From assembly GCA_001630475.1 (NCBI GenBank), contig KV419408.1, positions 372,001 through 436,000 of the forward strand: 64,000 nucleotides of DNA, given 5' to 3'. Of this stretch, positions 24,210 through 33,752 are shown piece by piece (position 1 is the first letter of the stretch; every line of letters begins with the position of its first letter). Made by a program: the position numbers and the translations under genes. Below the pieces are notes generated by a model. It was not told the DNA's origin. It was given only the letters and a program-made list of their open reading frames with translations, and ran no database searches. The stretch is from Sistotremastrum niveocremeum HHB9708 (lineage: Eukaryota > Basidiomycota > Agaricomycetes > Sistotremastrales > Sistotremastraceae).

Positions 24210-25828
24210 TCACATCACGATGCAATCCTTCTTGTTTTCCGGATTGGCAGTGGTCTCTCGGCTAAGGACGGCTTCAGCAGTTCCGCCTGGCGTGGGGGGT
24301 TGCGGGGTGGAATGCGAGGTCTTCAGTCGTTGGATGGCACGTTTGTCACCTTGCTCAGCTGCTAATTTGTAGAAACTGATTGCACTACAATCCCGAATGT
24401 CAACAAAAGGAGTAGAAACGGGGAGCAAGAGACGTACTCTGGAAGACTTTGCGGTGTACCAATACCGACTTCGAAGAAGTAGCCGACGGCATATTGGGCT
24501 TTGGCCAAACCCTGCTCAGCAGCTTTCTTGGCCCACAGGAAAGCCTCTGTATCCGATTGAGGAAGGACACCAGGTGATCCTACCAGATACCACGCTGTGA
24601 GCGCGAAGCATGCATCTCGGTGGTTCTGTTGAGCTGCGATATTCTGAAACAGGTGTCAGGATACGACGAGGGCGGATGAAGGGTTTAACCCCACATAATA
24701 ATGTATCGACAACGCCGGGTCTTGAGGACAACCCATCTTGCCATACTCATAACATTCTCCGAGGCGATAAGCGCTGGGAGCGTATTCGAGTTCGGACGCC
24801 TGCGCCAATAACTCAGCTGCATACTCGAGATCCACGAAGACGACGTTGTCAACGCCTCTTTCATGCAGCAGGGCGAGCTCGTGCAGGGCATGAGGAAATT
24901 CAGCGGTAGCGTGTTCCGCTGAGCGCTTCAGCCATTTCACACCTTCCCGAGGCCGTTTCGAGAGACCCAGTTCGCCGTTGAGCTCTGCTACGCCGAGACG
25001 GTAAAGGGCACCGGGATGAAGGGCGGCGGCGGCCTTGCGAAAAAACTGTACAGCCTTGGCGGACTCACGGCGACAGCCCCATCCGTTCTCGCAACATGTC
25101 CCAGCACGATACGCTGCATCGGGATGGCCGTGTTTCGCAGCGAGGACGAAGAGAGGATATGCTCGATCGAAGTCTTGACGATTTTTGACTGTTCCCAAGC
25201 CGTTTGCGTAGCAATCAGCAAGGAAATACTGCGCAGCAGGTAGTCCACGGTCCGCGAGTTTTTTGAGAAGAGATGTTGCTTCGCGGACGAGATCATCGCG
25301 TTTCTGTAGTGCTTTTTCGATCTCCATGACGTTACCCGGTGCAGGAGCTGGAACGGGTAGCGACTTGGAAGCATCTATCATGAAGACGGCGAATTCGAAT
25401 TGAACTTCGGGATCTTGGGTCTTCTTAGCATTGGCTCGATATAACGCAAGGGTACGCTCATGAGATAGAAGAGCTGCTTGGTTTCCAGGTCTCAAATGAG
25501 AATGGTCGAGGATGGGTGGGGATGGCGGCCGAGGTTTCCCTTTGGGCGGCGGATGGGTCACCTGGGACTGCGAGTCGTCTTTGTGATAAGTGTAGAAGTC
25601 GTCCTTCTCGTCGGTGGAGGGCGACTCGTCGTCGTCTGCCTGATAACGCGAGTACCCTCGAGGCTCAGCTTGTGACACAGACTGTCGAGGTACATGTGAT
25701 GTCGTCGGGGCTGGATATCCTGGATCAGCTTGGGACGATCGCCTTGATCCTGCAGAGGAGGTACGACTCCTCGACGAGCCCGGCTGTGCGAAGTGAGGTT
25801 GCGGAGGAGGCAGGATATCGCCCTGCAT
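24210..25828 (-). CDS. SKT5: Skt5/Chs4-type Sel1-repeat activator of chitin synthase
   Basis: Minus-strand gene with a disordered Ser/Pro-rich N-terminus (about 130 residues) and a chain of at least six Sel1-like repeats. Examples are AAQYFLADCYANGLG, DAAYRAGTCCENGWGC, GALYRLGVAELNGELG, PSAYRLGECYEYGKMG and KAQYAVGYFFEVGIGT. The protein ends KKDCIVM followed by the stop, a CaaX prenylation box. Yeast Chs4/Skt5 carries both features and recruits and activates chitin synthase III at the bud neck; the same role at septa or tips is inferred. Introns lie at about 24640-24700 and 24385-24450. It is divergent from DNMT1 with 137 bases between start codons. Confidence 0.87.
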
Positions 25829-25965
25829 TGAGGATGCTGGAGAGTATAGGGAGGCTCAGTGTTACTCAGTGTAGGCGCCGCAGGTGTTCGGACAATTCCG
25901 TGTTAGCGAACTCAACGTTGACATTCTCCAGCTCATCGCTCACGTCCTTCATCTTGTCGTACATC
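25829..25965. promoter_or_regulatory. Bidirectional promoter SKT5 / DNMT1
   Basis: A 137-base gap between divergent start codons, with normal CpG content. It lies outside the CpG-poor block that begins several hundred bases inside DNMT1. No TATA box is obvious. Confidence 0.4.
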
Positions 25966-28900
25966 ATGGCTCGGCAATCCAAGAGAGCTCGACTCACCTC
26001 CCTTGACATGTGGGGGGAACCCAATGATGATTCAACACACCTCGAGACACATACCTCTACACCTCAGCCCCCCACATCCCCCGAACTTCCTCGTCGCCGG
26101 CCGGCAGTCTCGAACATGGCGGCTCCTTCAAGACCTGGCAGATTGGACCCGCGTACTCCCACTCCCGCTCCCACTCATACGCCAAATGTTGGGCGTTATA
26201 CACCCTCGCCAAACAATATCCCCGAGAACGAGTTTGTTCAGGAATTCAATCAGGATCTTTTGGTCGATGATTCAGAGTTGTCTAACGCTGATCAAAAGCC
26301 TATATTCACTCTGGATTTGTTCTCCGTGTTCGACCCTGAACAAGATTTTATTTTTCGATCACTCTCGCTACTGGTGGACAGTTCCGATAACAGTAGTTTC
26401 TATGCTGCTGGCGTTGCTTGCCCCATGAATCATGACGCAAGCAACTCTGGGGATGAAGAAGAAGGTGATGACGATGAAGAATTAGATGATGCTGTGCCTG
26501 TACAATTAAGCACAATTATAAGAACTTGGTGTGAGTTCTACCCGAGTCTGTAAGTCGGATTCAGCCATTGTATGTAACACTCTGACAAGCATTACAGGCA
26601 AATCTGTATTGAAACCGAATATGCATGGTATTACCTCCAACAACCATCAGTGGAATACAGACACCACTATCAACCCTTCTACATTCCCCGGAGTCTTGCC
26701 TCCTTTATTGTGTCCATGATTGTTCAAGATGAATCAATTGATTATACTACGGCCAAGGGTCTACTGTCCCAATCACATGATCACATTCTGGGAAGACCAT
26801 TTTATGTTGATGAGTTTGATTCCCATGTCTGCTGTTCCTTTGGCTTCCTGATGGCTTTACTCATCCTTGGAATCAGATTGAAGAGATTACACTTGAACTC
26901 ATGGAAACAATTGAAGCAAATGAGCTGCACAATGTTCCACTTGTTTCCTTTCTTTTGAAGCAAAGTGGCATTGGGTCCTCACATCTGCATCATTCCAACA
27001 CACGACAACGGGGGCAACAAAGCAATTTTCAAAGTGACAAAAGGCTCCTCAGAGATGATCTTAAGGATAAAATTTGTCTCACTGGCACCATTCATGGGAT
27101 TGTGGCACCTTTCTTTCATCAAGAGTTTCATATCCTTCCTTCTCCACCCCAACTCCCATACATTGAAGCTATGGAATCTGAAGGATTGGTTCTCAGATAT
27201 CAAGTGATGTTGCAAGAATGGTCCAAGCTTAGGCCCACAGAAGCCTTTTGCCAGCTACAGAAAAATGATGAAGGATTTCAACGCTTCAGGCTGGGCAAGC
27301 ATACATATAAAGTTTGGAACAACTTGCTTTTCTAAGAGTTACACTACTAATCCATGTTCCCAAGATTCTAGATGATTTGGTTTTGAGTGACAGAGAAAAC
27401 AAGGGTCCCTCCTTCAAGGGTGTAGGGTAAGCCAAATATTTAGATGTCTAGCAGGACCTATCTAATGGCCAATGCCCATATCAAGATTTGCTAAGCTGGT
27501 TGGAATTCTGAACAATCAAACCCATTCATTGAAGCCACTGGCATCAGACCTCTCACTTCTTGTCCACCATTACATTCATTCACAACAAACTTTCCTTGGG
27601 CCTATTGGCAGTGCACAAGCACTTTTTGCCACCAGAAAATGCTCTGTCATCAAAGCCTCCCAAGTTATTGGACAATGCAGTGTTCTAGATGTCAAGAGTC
27701 ATGAACTCCTCCCTGAAGGACATGCACCTTTTCATTTTTACTGCTCGTGAGTGTCTGCATATCTAAGGTGTCATGTAACTAATATTCTCTGTTTGAAACA
27801 GCCATTTTTATGATCATGACCAAGGGGTGTTTGAGGATGTCCAATCTGGCTTCTTTGCCTCCCACTGTCAAAATGGTTGTCAAATGTCAAAGCCAAGTAC
27901 AACTACCCCAAAGATTAGCTTCAATCAGCAGAAAGCCAAATTCCATGGACAGACTGTGCACCTGCATGACTATGTCAGGATTCAGAGCAAAACAGGCTAC
28001 TGTGATGTTGGAAAAATTGCTGGCTTCAAGGCCTCAGCACTCCTTGTTCAGCTCTTTGAACACCTGGATGATAACTTTCATGGTGTAAGTTTCTCTTTGT
28101 TCCCTCTTCCTCTATAATCATTGTCCTTAGACCCAGCTGGTTATGAATCCCACTATTGTACAAGTGGCACAGGAAAACATTCTTGGCCCTTGTTTTGTCA
28201 GATTCTTTATTGAGCCTCCAAAGCCACCCACTCCTCAAAGTTCAGGTGAATTTCATTACACTGGACTGTGGTGGTCCAAAAAGAAAGATCCCAGAGATCC
28301 CACCAGGCCGCTGATTTCCCCACTCCCAGCTGAGAAAGAGGCCTGCTCAATTTGTTATTCTTCTCAAGACAATGATCTTCCTATGGAAAGAAAGATCAAG
28401 AATTTTATGGCCTCTCATGGTCCATTAAAGGTCTTGGATTTATTTGCAGGGGGAGGAGGACTCAGTCATGGCATGTCTACTAATCAAAGTAGCTCTATTG
28501 CTCAGGCAGTTGAGATCTCTACGCATGCTTGTGAAACATTAAGGTCTGTCTGCTTCTTGTTGTCAGCTCTGATTTATTATTCATCTATTTTGCTACTAGA
28601 TTAAATCTAGGGGAGAAAAGGGATTCTCAAGTTGTTGTCAATGCTTCCTGCAGCACATTCTTGCAGCATGCTCTTGAGTGTGTCCATGGATGTGGCTGTC
28701 AAAGCATTGACCAACTCCCTTTGCCTCCACTGGCATCAGATATTGACATTATCACATTTGGACCACCTTGGTAAGTTTCTGTGAACTGTCCCTGAGTATC
28801 ACTGATGACAAATATAGCACCTCATTGTCCAAATTAAATCGACACCAGCATGAACAGTCTCTGCAGGCTGTTCATAATAACCACATTCAAACTGGGAATC

Positions 28901-30281
28901 GAAACAGCTCTTTCTTTGTTGCTTTGTCCTATGTGGATTATTTGAGGCCAGAATTTGTTGTCATAGAAAATGTGCCACCTATTACTACTTGGAAGGTCAG
29001 TGCAACAGATGGTGCTCACATTGACATCCCCAATGGTGGTTTAAGCCTTATTGTGAGATGTTTTCTTGAAATGGGGTATGTTGAACATTGCAGATTGCAC
29101 ATGTGTTTACCAGATTATTCAGATACCAAGTCAGGTTTGCTCTCCTAGATGCTAGGCATTATGGTGCCCCACAGAGGAGGAGGAGATTTTTTCTTTTGGC
29201 AGCCAGATCTGGCAGTGTTCTGCCAAACATGCCACAGCCCACACACTGGTTTCAAGCAAAGGAACAGTTGGCAATTATGCTGGCAGATGGGACAGTTGTG
29301 AATCCACTTGGAACTGCAGATGGCACCACCATGTTTCAATCACCCAACATTGGTGATGCCATATCAGACCTACCTCAGTTTGATTGGTAAGCAGATACAG
29401 TCTTTGTTCACAAATAATGACTTTCTATGTCTTATTCAGGAAGATCCAAAAAAATCCAATGAGCCAGGAACCAGAACCCCTCTTGGGTTCTAATGGATTT
29501 TCAGGGTATCATCTGAAAGTTCCCAGAAATGTGTTCCAGAGAAATGCCAGGAGGGGAGAACCAGATGATCTCCAACACTTCACTGAGGTTTTGCCTCTTG
29601 GGGTGATTAAAAGGTATGTTTGTGAAGTGTGTAGAAGAGACACAATGCTAAGTTTCATTAGGGTGCTTTCCATTCCCATAACTCAGAATGCAGATTATCT
29701 CAGCCTGGAAGCAAGACACCAGGAATGGCAAACATCTGCTCCAGAGTCAGCACGTGCCCGTCAAGGGTTCAGAAAAGGTGCATAGCATATTTCTTTTGTT
29801 GTTAACATTGCCAAGTGAATGCTCTAGGTCTCTATAGCCGCCTACCAATGCATGAATATTTTCCTACATTAACAACGAACTTCCGGCCAACTGCCAAGCA
29901 ATCAAAATGTTTGCATCCACTTGTAAGGACACACATCTTGAGTTGTTTCAATTGTCCAAATTAAGCAATGTCTAGCAAAAGAGGATTTATACTATCCGAG
30001 AGCTAGCAAGAGGACAAACATTTCCAGACTTTTGGTGAGTCTACATACATCATCTACATGTATGATAATTTGAAAGGGATATGTTTGTAGGGAGTTCAAG
30101 TCATTAAATGATAGCCCTGCAGATGTGAGTTGTGACTGATTTCAGAGTGAAGAGGTCATCTGAACCTCTTGTCTTCCAGATGGTGAGACAGATTGGGAAT
30201 GCAGTGCCTCCTGTCATAGGCATTGCTTTGGAAAAGGAGATAATATTTGCAAAATGGAAAGCAGAAGCTGGTCAGAAATAA
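25966..30281 (+). CDS. DNMT1: DNMT1-type cytosine-5 DNA methyltransferase
   Basis: Multi-exon gene of about 1,100 codons. A disordered N-terminus is followed by an RFTS (replication-foci) domain (IFTLDLFSVFDPEQDF, ICIETEYAWYYLQQPSVEYR), at least one BAH domain (FHGQTVHLHDYVRIQSKTGY), and a C-terminal catalytic domain. Motifs are complete: I (LDLFAGGGGLSHG), IV (FGPPC, the catalytic Cys codon split by an intron at about 28769-28817), VI (VIENVPP), VIII (GAPQRRRRFF), IX-X (RELARGQTFPDFW, QIGNAVPPVIGIAL). Such enzymes keep CpG methylation after replication. The first intron is 26550-26597. Stop TAA 30279-30281. Exon 1 has normal CpG content, but from about 26.7 kb on exons and introns are almost free of CpG, and Arg is coded by AGA/AGG (all four in motif VIII). 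The frame nevertheless looks whole. Confidence 0.92.
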
Positions 30282-30955
30282 CATTACTACTAGTAGATCT
30301 GCAATAGTGCCTTGTTTGTACAAAGATAGATTATATTTACACCAGATACTTCATATCATTACAACTGACTGTCAAAAAAATCCAATGCCTTATCCAAGTC
30401 AATGCAAGAAATGAGACAATCCTTTACCGCTGAAAGATAGATGTATTTGGTATCCATTCCCTTAGACTTTGCTCCATCTGGAAGAATGATATGATCATAC
30501 TCCTGCAAACTTAATGAAGCCAATTTGGCATCAACAGTGGCTTCCACATGGAGGGCCCCCATTGCAGAAATAATGAGAGGCACTGATGAGCTTGCTTCAT
30601 GTGCCTTTGCATTTTTAGAACCCTTGATAATATGTGAGCAGAGGGCAGACGGTACAGCAAGCCAAGCACCTTTTTAATATTTTTAGGCACAAACGAGGGC
30701 CCAAGACAAAGAACCTTCTCCCCCATAAAAGCTTTATTACTGACAGAAAACTTGAAGAGTTCAGAGAGATCAAGTTTGTCACCCCAATCATAAGCAAACC
30801 GTTGAGCTACTTTCTGTCCAAAAAAACAAGAAACTCCAGCAGCAAGGACATGATTCTTCCAATTGAATGTCCCCTGGTACATTATGTGAGACTATATCGA
30901 TTTGATAAAGACATAAAACATGCCTTTGCTTTTACCTCATCCAAAATTGAGATGG
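26700..30955. other. CpG-depleted block
   Basis: Counted by eye, 26761-30960 holds about 19 CpG dinucleotides in 4.2 kb, several runs of 300-700 bases having none. Random expectation at this base composition is near 185. Flanking DNA (for example 26041-26220 and 31141-31320) has about 4-6 CpG per 60 bases. The block covers exons and introns of DNMT1, the spacer, and the last three exons of the convergent crb2-like gene. TpG and CpA are plentiful, as expected if methylated cytosines have decayed. The left edge is graded within DNMT1 exon 1-2; the right edge, near 30960, is sharp. Confidence 0.85.
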
Positions 30956-33752
30956 ACAGGCATGGAACACCAAGAGCGAGCGCAATCAGATATTTTGCGG
31001 TGTGACTTTCCTGATCCGATAGCAAGAAGATCCGATCCAGTCCTTTTCCAATGTACTTGATGTCGTCAATTTTTCTCATCCAATATTTTCCGTTGGTGAG
31101 CAAAGCATCATCCAGGGAGAAGATTTCATTCCAATCCGTGATGAAGCTGCCACCTGCAGACTTGATCACGGCACACAAACGGTCCTTGCTACCGTCTGCA
31201 TCACTCGCGTTAGGACACAAGGTGATTAGAAATCCGACACGGCTTAGCACTCCCGCTCCTTTGGAAGAGGGCGGTGGATGTCCTCCGCGTCGCAGGTTAG
31301 CAGATGGGCCCGGCGTCTGAGTAGGGAAGACAATTTCGTCACTTCGAATCAGTCGATTTTGCCAGGAATCCGCTGATATCCATTCCTTCCGGAGTTTCAA
31401 CTCAGAGGCCGCAAGGTCGAGCTCGGAATCATCTGAATCCATCTGGACAGTAACAATCCCTTCAGTGAGCCAACGAGAAGTGTCTAACACTTTTCCGACG
31501 CCTCTCCCAGCACGGCCGCAAAGTTGGACGAGATCGTGCACATGAAGGATGCACTGGCGTAATTGGGAGATGTCGACATCCGCCGAATTGGAGTCATCAA
31601 ACAGTACGCTGTACTTGGAAGACGAAGAGTGGTAGGGACCTGTGACAGTTCCCGAGTAATAAAAACCGTCGCTTTTCCAGAACGCAAAGACTCGAGTCCC
31701 GTCGTTTGCCTGACTCTCTTTCTCAGCGAGGCCCGGTGAATGGGTTCTTAGGCGTTTGGCACTCCGAGGCTGTCTCATGTCGTTTGTTTTTTTCCGTATG
31801 GGTGTTACTGGGTTCGGAGAGTGGTCATGCGTAGATTCATCGATTGGAGAGGTGACTTCTCGGGTTCGCTTGCGTTTGCCAGTTGATTTGGACGGGGGCT
31901 TGGTAACGTGAGCTTGGTTAGGTCGCGGCGTGTTGCGTTCGACCTGCTTTCCTTTGGCTAGACACGTATCATAAGAACGATGAAGAACGACAGACAAGAA
32001 CCAACTCACACAACGAGATCAACGGGATGTCCTGAGATTGCTCCAGTTCTGGAGTCGCTTCCCGTCCTTCAACTTCTTCGTCTTGTAAGGGAGGTAGTCG
32101 GCGTGATCGTTCGGGAGTATAGGGTGTCTGTCCTGCAGACTTGATTGTCGATTTAGCTTTCGATACAAGCGCAAATGGGCTCATGAGAGCATCAGGTTCT
32201 GAAGTTAGGACAACATCGGCCATATGCCTTAGGCCACGATCATCCGGCGAACGTGGTCCCGACCCAGATGGATCGGCTAGCTGTGGTCGTGGACCCTCGT
32301 CAACGTCCTCGTCGAGCTGCGTGGCCTGATCTGGCGGGGCTGCGTTGGCGGGACCACCAGCATTGATATCTGTAGTAGCTTTGGGCGGTTCGACTACGAG
32401 ATCAAAATCTTTCCTATATCGTTGCATGACGTGGCTGGAGAGTGGGATCCCAGTGGTAACGACTTTTCTCGCTACAGGAGGTACGAGAGCGACGTCGTTC
32501 GAAACACCAAGTTCAGGTTCGGTAGATCGGTTAGACAAATGCGTTCCATGCTGAGACGCGTCGCTCTCCGTGCCCGGTCCGTCGAGTTGTGTGGGCTCTC
32601 CAGGATTGTCGAGTTGTGTCGGTTCCCCTGGGTTATCGAGTTGGGTTGGTTCTCCCGGGTCGTCAAGCTGTGTCGGCTCCATGTCTGAGTAGGGTTCATC
32701 GAGCTGTGTTGGTTCACCATCTGCACCCAGCTGATTTTGTCTGCGACGTTGGAATTCCGGCCGCTGCGAATGTGGTAGTGAGCTGGAGACCGATCTGTCT
32801 TGAGATTCGGAAGGCGACGATGGGGTTTTCCAGGCAAACACACCCGACTGCTGCCGATATTGGCCCGGTGTAGGTAATGGAAGATCTTCTTCAAACTCGG
32901 GCTCCTCCTCTTGTCTCTCGTCATCCGCTTCGCTGCTCCGGCCAGACCTCGAATGTGTAAGGCGTTCAGCCGACGATTCGTAGAGCGAGGTGGGATAACC
33001 GACGGCGCGACCACTGAATGAAAGGGGTGCATTAAACGCGCTTGATTGCTCGACAAATGCCTCCACATCCTGTGTGTTCATGGACGCGCTGACAGACTCG
33101 GATACAGGTATGTTGAGCTGACGAGTCCTGCCCATTGAAGTGCGATCTTGGTGGGCACAATCGGCTTCAATGGCGAAGGATTCTTTTTCGCTCAAAGCAG
33201 GAGGTAGAGATGAACTGGACGAAGGTGAGGGCGAGGGTGAGGCAGCGGTATCTGGTGCGATATCGGAACCTTCTGACGAATCAAATGCAAGAATAGTCGT
33301 TCCAAGAGTGGGGTGTGCTGGAGGCCGCGATGATATTTTCCGACGTGCCGACCTATGGACGACAGGCCCCGTAGTCTGAGGATCCGACTGACCATTTTCC
33401 TTTAGTGAGTCATTTTCTGACACCAAGATGTTAGAAACAGGATGTGACGACCTTCGTCAAAGGCGGACGTGGGGACATGACTCACTGTGCATGTGGCTAG
33501 AATCGGGGCCGACGATGTCCCCACCACTTGAAGCCATATTGGAGGAGCTGGAGTCAACTGCGTAGTTGAGCACGAGGGATGGTTGTGACTCTTCTGTAGT
33601 ATTTGACGGCGCTGAAGCCTTGCTGATACTATGAAGCGGTCAGAGAAATAAAGAAATCGCGTGGAATGTAAGACAGACGTGAATGAATGAAGTAGTGGTT
33701 GGGTAGTCGAAGGTGACAAGAAAGGTCGGACGCGCCCGTCCGTCGAAGCCAT
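30359..33752 (-). CDS. crb2: Crb2/Rad9/53BP1-type DNA damage checkpoint mediator
   Basis: Minus-strand gene with the plan of fungal checkpoint mediators. The N-terminal half is disordered and acidic, with a tandem array of TQLD motifs (about 32579-32720, plus one copy near 32311). A Tudor domain follows (RVFAFWKSDGFYYSGTVTGP, YSVLFDDSNSADVDISQL), the histone methyl-lysine reader of Crb2/53BP1. Then come two C-terminal BRCT repeats (FLITLCPNASDADGSKDRLC, YIGKGLDRIFLLSD; second from GEKVLCLGPSFVP to EYDHIILPDGAK) joined by the linker WKNHVLAAGVSCFFG. These proteins recruit Chk1 and Cds1/Rad53 kinases to breaks. Introns lie at about 33645, 33420, 31970, 30890 and 30640. Exons below 30955 are CpG-poor, unlike the rest of the gene. 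Start ATG 33752 (MASTDGRVRPF). Confidence 0.85.
32579..32720 (-). repeat. Tandem EPTQLD coding repeat in crb2-like gene
   Basis: Five near-identical units of about 8 residues (EPTQLD plus spacer such as NPG or DPG) lie in a row, with a sixth TQLD about 260 bases downstream in the gene. Codon choice differs from unit to unit, so selection rather than very recent duplication seems to hold the motif. Confidence 0.8.

What the first reader, a model, noticed from the sequence alone, without database searches (positions are those of the whole stretch)
26700..30955. The DNA methyltransferase gene lies in a sharp CpG desert
By eye I count about 19 CpG in 26761-30960, against roughly 185 expected by chance at this composition, while flanks carry 4-6 per 60 bases. 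Exons and introns are both depleted and TpG/CpA are common. Arg in the depleted exons is coded almost only by AGA/AGG, including all four Arg of motif VIII. The reading frame and every catalytic motif survive. The simplest reading is long-term CpG methylation of this gene body in the germ line followed by 5mC decay, under selection on the protein: the methyltransferase locus may be a lasting target of its own product, possibly a self-dampening loop. I know of no described fungal case of this kind.
Basis: partly seen in the sequence, partly recalled or inferred. Interest (0 to 1): 0.85.

Follow-up and report, generated by a model that had tools for sequence, protein, structure and literature searches.

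The report
CpG-stripped methyltransferase gene in fungus
In a fungus, the apparently intact gene for the enzyme that copies DNA methylation has lost nearly all of its own CG sites, as if it had been methylated for ages, and a second gene for a likely silent-chromatin reader shows the same scar, which hints that the silencing machinery may mark some of its own genes.

Summary
In detail: 26761-30960 has 19 CpG against 185 expected; best-fit edges are 26557 and 30976. The gene is an intact, single-copy, 16-exon DNMT1 in a close relative of Sistotremastrum suecicum. Exon 1 has normal CpG; introns hold 1 CpG of 27.3 expected; 11 of 16 exonic CpG are in Arg codons. Reverting 184 TpG/CpA restores near-normal CpG, so this is CpG transition decay. 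Its protein footprint (low Arg, high His/Gln) is shared with S. suecicum, and a near-invariant Arg was lost after the split. Correction: the desert also covers the last coding part of the convergent Crb2-like gene. Deserts are rare here: none of 400 500-bp windows and 1 of 118 readable 300-bp probes. That one lies in a second intact single-copy gene with a normal first exon and CpG-poor body, encoding an HP1/Chp1-like chromodomain protein. Three of 16 reverse-transcriptase loci read are also deserts. Lasting CpG methylation with decay under selection is the best reading (0.65); a RIP-like past event is possible. Methylation was not measured; a feedback loop is untested.

The parts
26557..30976 (.). 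CpG desert (decay block): 22 CpG in 4420 bases, sharp at both edges
   Evidence: two-edge likelihood fit; base counts
25966..30281 (+). DNMT1 gene, 16 exons, 1179 codons; RFD, BAH and methylase domains assigned on the S. suecicum protein P0001
   Evidence: spliced model with open frame, (end corrected); exon-by-exon match to P0001; Pfam on P0001
25966..26549 (+). DNMT1 exon 1, normal CpG (29 for 35.4 expected)
26598..30281 (+). DNMT1 exons 2-16 and the introns between them, depleted (exons 16 CpG for 139.9; all introns together, intron 1 at 26550-26597 included, 1 for 27.3)
25700..25965 (+). stretch before the DNMT1 start codon, normal CpG (20 for 20.8)
30359..30976 (-). 3' coding part of the convergent Crb2-like (Tudor) gene inside the desert; the frame can be kept open with introns at 30874-30935 and 30670-30740
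   Evidence: Tudor_3 domain on window:30882-32018:-; 30283-30976 has 5 CpG for 27.0
30977..33456 (-). rest of the Crb2-like gene region (two long open frames), normal CpG
   Evidence: joining the two frames into one gene is my inference

Best explanation
The block is the scar of a long-lived CpG-methylated domain. It begins about 0.6 kb inside the DNMT1 gene, spares the region before the gene and exon 1, covers the rest of the gene and ends in the tail of the convergent neighbour. Methylated C in CpG turned into T over many generations in nuclei that are passed on, while selection kept the reading frame and some Arg codons, leaving an apparently working gene almost free of CpG. Shown: CpG transition decay in exons and introns, sharp edges, an open single-copy gene, a protein footprint shared with the sister species, at least one later loss, rarity in the sampled genome, the same signature in some retroelements, and the same 5'-spared layout at a chromodomain gene. 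Inferred: that the cause is 5mC, that the mark lies in inherited nuclei, and which enzyme lays it. Not shown: any effect on expression.
For: Pure CpG signature: CpG at 0.12, TpG and CpA at 1.33, TpA at 0.83 of the rest of the window; reverting 184 TpG/CpA brings TpG+CpA to 1.09 and CpG O/E to 0.88. Introns 1 CpG of 27.3; 11 of 16 exonic CpG in Arg codons. Lowest Arg and highest His and Gln counts among 41 aligned sequences, S. suecicum next on each. R611H: Arg in 34 of 35 other long homologues and in S. suecicum, CAC here. Single copy. Outlier: 0 of 400 500-bp windows below O/E 0.62, 117 of 118 readable probes at 0.41 or more. Same scar in 3 of 16 RVT_1 loci read and in an intact chromodomain gene. 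The genome has a DNMT5-like and an SRA gene besides DNMT1. CG methylation by DNMT1-RFD and DNMT5 is the known basidiomycete state (passages).
Against: No methylation data exist here. Most fungi are said to lack gene-body methylation (passages). Other genes of the pathway (DNMT5-like, SRA) have normal CpG. The depletion is very deep (positions 2-3 and 3-1 keep 5 of 94.3 expected, introns 1 of 27.3), which may ask for more than slow spontaneous deamination. Of the other possible products of CpG loss at Arg codons, Trp and Cys are not raised in the protein. One of the 9 exon-1 differences from S. suecicum (A70T) also fits a CpG loss, so such changes are not confined to the block.
Confidence: 0.65

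Rival explanations
1. Ghost of a duplication: a 4.4-kb segment holding DNMT1 exons 2-16 and the neighbour's tail was once present twice, was hit by a RIP-like CpG-directed mutation process, and the second copy was later lost.
For: The edges ignore gene borders, as a duplicated segment would. CpG-biased hypermutation is reported in other Agaricomycetes, in R. solani AG8 also in genes (passages). Depletion is deep.
Against: No second copy in the genome. A burst should have broken the frame; it is open. At least one CpG loss came after the split from S. suecicum. A second gene with the same exon-1-spared layout would need the same accident.
Confidence: 0.17
2. Ordinary animal-like gene-body methylation that hits many active genes of this fungus, DNMT1 being one of many.
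For: The layout (5' end spared, body depleted) is that of gene-body methylation; a second gene shows it.
Against: 0 of 400 windows and 1 of 118 readable probes: ordinary genes are not affected in the sample. My estimate cannot exclude tens of such genes.
Confidence: 0.1
3. Horizontal transfer or introgression of a CpG-poor segment.
For: The protein is divergent (best hits outside Sistotremastrum 40% identity or less; 10 of 82 near-invariant columns deviate).
Against: One edge lies in or next to intron 1 of the gene and the other in the neighbour's coding exon. The listed close hits are nearly all Agaricomycete DNMT1-RFD proteins. Mass balance shows decay from a CpG-normal state. No tree was built.
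Confidence: 0.03
4. Direct selection for a CpG-free gene (escape from methylation or from mutation), with mutation playing a minor part.
For: Introns are stripped as well as silent sites. Retroelement pieces with open frames and 0 to few CpG exist, as methylation-proof elements might look.
Against: Loss of a near-invariant Arg looks like a side product of mutation. Exon 1 and the stretch before it keep their CpG.
Confidence: 0.03

Closest known systems
Gene-body methylation with CpG depletion in animals and plants
   Same: CpG-poor transcribed body with the 5' end spared and the gene intact.
   Different: Here the sample shows it at very few genes, it runs past the gene end into the neighbour, and methylation is not measured; reviews describe most fungi as lacking gene-body methylation (passages of PMC7862722 and PMC13297926).
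CpG-biased RIP-like hypermutation of Agaricomycetes (R. solani AG8, Ganoderma sinense, Tricholoma matsutake)
   Same: C to T at CpG; in R. solani AG8 also in genes (passages of PMC4014442, PMC4457147, PMC6980582).
   Different: Those reports concern transposons or genome-wide heterozygous SNPs; here one sharp block in a single-copy gene with an open frame.
Heterochromatin laid over heterochromatin-assembly genes in fission yeast lacking Mst2 and Epe1
   Same: In a fungus, silencing machinery marks genes of its own making and lowers their expression (abstract and digest of PMC4395908 read; that the gene is clr4 is recalled).
   Different: Induced in mutants, histone-based, no DNA methylation and no DNA scar.
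ROS1 epigenetic rheostat of Arabidopsis
   Same: A gene of the methylation balance is itself controlled by methylation (abstract of PMC4380477 read).
   Different: A demethylase gene controlled through a 5' transposon; here the 5' region is CpG-normal and the body carries the scar.

Membership tests
DNMT1-RFD (Masc2) methyltransferases of Basidiomycota | C-5 methylase domain with motifs PPC and ENV | tested here: met
   PF00145 118.1 bits on the S. suecicum orthologue P0001; GPPC at 810 and ENV at 863 in the window's model
DNMT1-RFD (Masc2) methyltransferases of Basidiomycota | RFD domain | tested here: met
   PF12047 27.9 bits, cut-off 22, on P0001; the window's own model was not scanned
DNMT1-RFD (Masc2) methyltransferases of Basidiomycota | BAH domain | tested here: inconclusive
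   PF01426 29.9 bits against a cut-off of 30.8 on P0001
Gene-body methylation with CpG depletion | 5mC in the transcribed body | not testable with these tools
   no methylation data
Gene-body methylation with CpG depletion | CpG-poor body with CpG-normal 5' end | tested here: met
   exon 1 29 CpG of 35.4 expected, exons 2-16 16 of 139.9
Gene-body methylation with CpG depletion | affects a sizeable class of genes | tested here: inconclusive
   samples only: 0 of 400 windows, 1 of 118 readable probes
RIP or RIP-like hypermutation | acts on repeated DNA | tested here: not met
   block matches only itself in the genome; a lost past copy cannot be excluded
RIP or RIP-like hypermutation | C to T bias, at CpG in Agaricomycetes | tested here: met
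   no TCG preference, no TpA gain
RIP or RIP-like hypermutation | breaks reading frames | tested here: not met
   frame open through 16 exons
Self-silencing feedback on a silencing gene | the mark lowers expression of that gene | not testable with these tools
   no expression or methylation data

The most novel reading that the evidence does not exclude
In Sistotremastrum and its kin the silent-chromatin machinery keeps some of its own genes (the sole DNMT1 and a chromodomain reader) under a constitutive, 5'-sparing CpG-methylation domain: a standing feedback that limits the dose of the silencing machinery, old enough to have stripped the gene bodies of CpG and, for DNMT1, to have changed the protein's Arg content.
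Probability: 0.2. Interest if true: 0.9.

Novelty: new variant of a known kind. Interest (0 to 1): 0.72.

Why it matters
Fungal CpG methylation is usually described as a transposon matter and gene bodies as largely free of it. A single-copy, intact DNMT1 gene with a near-complete CpG scar, plus a second scar on a chromodomain gene hit by an arbitrary probe, suggests that intact genes can be lasting targets and that these may include genes of the silencing machinery. The idea is directly testable by a genome-wide CpG scan and one nanopore run, and it would tie the mutation load of 5mC to the evolution of the methylation machinery.

Tried and rejected
Frameshift or pseudogene: two apparent frame jumps in the N-terminal half were resolved as introns with the help of S. 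suecicum P0001. P0001's own model lacks about 31 residues after DLKDKI that are open here, probably a difference of gene models; a few of the 37 differences between the two lie beside that gap.

TCG-type or CpA-type RIP: not seen. A repeat or hairpin inside the block: only short, imperfect pairs, the longest a 35-nt inverted pair at 74%. A second DNMT1 copy: none found. TET/JBP genes: PF12851 and PF20515 gave nothing, but the controls rang nowhere either, so absence is not shown. Orthologous DNA in viral contigs: none. AGR-coded kinase motif as a desert detector: 2 of 10 strict matches are AGR-coded, both in normal-CpG DNA. Homologues of the C5 chromodomain protein: none at E 1e-3 in two searches, which see only proteins of 0.55-1.75 times the query's length. 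Arg-consensus site test: weak. Ten literature searches: in the titles and abstract starts listed (some lists were capped) I saw no report of a CpG-depleted or methylated DNMT1 gene in a fungus; the library holds open-licence papers only, and Horns et al. 2012 was not held. Structure prediction was not run, as it would not bear on the question. No tree was built.
Full report
WHAT IS THERE. The window is G000:C15:372001-436000 of a 34.7-Mb, 111-contig genome. The closest protein to the methyltransferase is that of Sistotremastrum suecicum HHB10207 (97% identity). The fungus is thus a close relative; its record is unnamed, and my guess that it is S. niveocremeum is recalled, not shown. Bases 26761-30960 hold 19 CpG for 185.0 expected; the flanks sit at O/E 0.95-0.96. 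A two-edge likelihood fit gives 26557-30976. The gene model has 16 exons from 25966 to 30281 and an open frame of 1179 codons, matched piece by piece by P0001. Exon 1 (29 CpG for 35.4 expected) and the stretch before the start codon (20 for 20.8) are normal; exons 2-16 have 16 for 139.9 and introns 1 for 27.3. The last 0.7 kb (30283-30976; 5 for 27.0) is a short gap and the 3' coding part of a convergent gene with a Crb2-type Tudor domain. Its frame can be kept open with two introns of 62 and 71 bases; this is a model of mine without transcript support.

WHAT KIND OF CHANGE. Relative to the rest of the window CpG is at 0.12, TpG and CpA at 1.33 and TpA at 0.83. Reverting 184 TpG/CpA to CpG brings TpG+CpA to the flank value (1.09) and CpG O/E to 0.88, against 0.96 in the flanks, so CpG transitions account for nearly all of the deficit. 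The four NCG contexts are at 0.04-0.13 of the flank level, with no TCG preference. Of 16 residual exonic CpG, 11 are at codon positions 1-2, that is in Arg codons, where 42.6 are expected; positions 2-3 and 3-1 keep 4 and 1 of 40.8 and 53.5. Arg is coded 35 AGR to 11 CGN, against 26.2% AGR in 47 long open frames elsewhere; among the 42 with at least 15 Arg the highest share is 0.48.

TIME. Among 41 aligned sequences (the model, P0001 and 39 others, some of them short) the desert-encoded part has the lowest Arg share (46 of 984; P0001 50 of 953; others 5.8-9.7%) and the highest His and Gln counts (46 and 68; P0001 44 and 64; others at most 41 and 58); Trp and Cys are not raised, and the Arg/(Arg+Lys) ratio of 0.49 is tied by one other row, P0011. 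His and Gln are what CGN to CAN gives, and since S. suecicum ranks second on each measure most of it probably predates the split. A narrower test at Arg-consensus sites is weak: 5 of 28 turned to His/Gln here, 3 of 28 in S. suecicum, 0-3 in each of the other 35 long sequences. Of 37 differences between the two species, 28 lie in the desert part and 4 of these fit a CpG loss here; in exon 1 it is 1 of 9. R611H is polarised by Arg in 34 of 35 other long homologues, so loss went on after the split. The enzyme is somewhat divergent: 10 of 82 near-invariant columns deviate, 9 of them shared with S. suecicum, including the residue after the catalytic Cys; by the same leave-one-out count two other homologues, P0055 and P0061, deviate as much or more.

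HOW RARE IT IS. I took 20 stretches of 10 kb at places of my choosing (5 of them on C15, 4 of these next to the window): none of 400 500-bp windows is below O/E 0.62, and the lowest of 660 300-bp windows is 0.38. I then took 80 probes of 300 bp at random-number places and 40 at round-number places; 118 are readable, 2 are mostly or wholly N; 117 have O/E 0.41 or more and one, L150 at C5:420000, has 0 CpG. The second methylase gene (L022, DNMT5-like by my reading of its frames, not by a family search), the SRA gene (L040, L041) and two kinase genes are normal. Of 30 reverse-transcriptase matches listed I read 16: three, Ty3/Gypsy-like by my reading and open through the pieces read, have O/E 0.00, 0.09 and 0.23; the other 13 are at 0.85 or more. 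Two of the three lie at contig ends. On C33 the depletion fades to normal over 380.0-380.8 kb.

A SECOND GENE. The C5 hit was extended to 1.3 kb (L166). It holds the first part of a minus-strand gene with introns of 50-52 bases. Exon 1 has 18 CpG for 14.5 expected; after it there are 5 for 47.7, with TpG+CpA O/E 1.38 and Arg coded 14 AGR to 2 CGN, and the six exons seen, one of only 7 bases, stay open over 292 codons in my model. Only its own place matches in the genome. Pfam Chromo matches residues 46-100 at 20.1 bits, under the cut-off of 25.1. The 15 PDB sequences matched at E up to 1 are all chromodomain proteins, with CBX5 first (E 9e-4, the only one under 1e-3), then Chp1, CDY, Clr4, HP1 and MPP8 ('Chp1' for 'Chromo domain-containing protein 1' is recalled). 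No homologue was found in the protein collection. That such domains read H3K9 methylation is general knowledge; that this protein does so is inference. It was one hit from an arbitrary place, so its link to silencing could be luck.

READING. Transitions at CpG only, in introns and exons alike, selection on Arg, the spared 5' end and the same scar in some retroelements fit long-standing CpG methylation with decay. DNMT1-RFD with DNMT5 and CG methylation of transposons is the known basidiomycete state, and gene-body methylation is described as mostly absent in fungi (passages of PMC7862722 and PMC13297926). A RIP-like process is the main rival: CpG-biased hypermutation is reported in R. solani AG8 (genes included), G. 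sinense and T. matsutake (passages). Single copy, open frame, continued decay and the same layout at a second gene speak against one burst. Here it remains a hypothesis, and two other genes of the pathway (DNMT5-like, SRA) show no scar.

NOVELTY. In ten searches of the open-licence library I saw no listed paper on a CpG-depleted or self-methylated DNMT1 gene in a fungus. I rate it a new variant of a known kind.

Noticed in passing
L150 and L166 (G000:C5:419400-420700): Second CpG desert in an intact single-copy gene: chromodomain protein, normal first exon, CpG-poor body.
   Followed up: partly
L025 (C1:1800-3800), L026 (C27:468000-469707), L028 (C33:378300-380300): Ty3/Gypsy-like pieces with open frames and 0, 7 and 18 CpG in 1.7-2.0 kb, while 13 other RVT_1 loci are CpG-normal; two lie at contig ends. 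They look like elements that survive without CpG.
   Followed up: partly
G000:C15:267975-268491: The only SRA (UHRF1-type) domain found in the genome lies on the same contig, about 130 kb from DNMT1, with normal CpG.
   Followed up: no
window 28600-29075: DNMT1 here and in S. suecicum has Thr instead of Gln after the catalytic Cys (Q814T; Gln in 35 of 35 other long homologues) and other shared changes at near-invariant columns; effect on activity unknown.
   Followed up: no
window 25828-25966: DNMT1 and a minus-strand Sel1-repeat open frame start within about 140 bases of each other, a possible shared promoter with normal CpG.
   Followed up: no
L076 (C4:720343-720642) and L165 (C46:120000-120299): Probes with moderately low CpG O/E, 0.41 and 0.48.
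   Followed up: no
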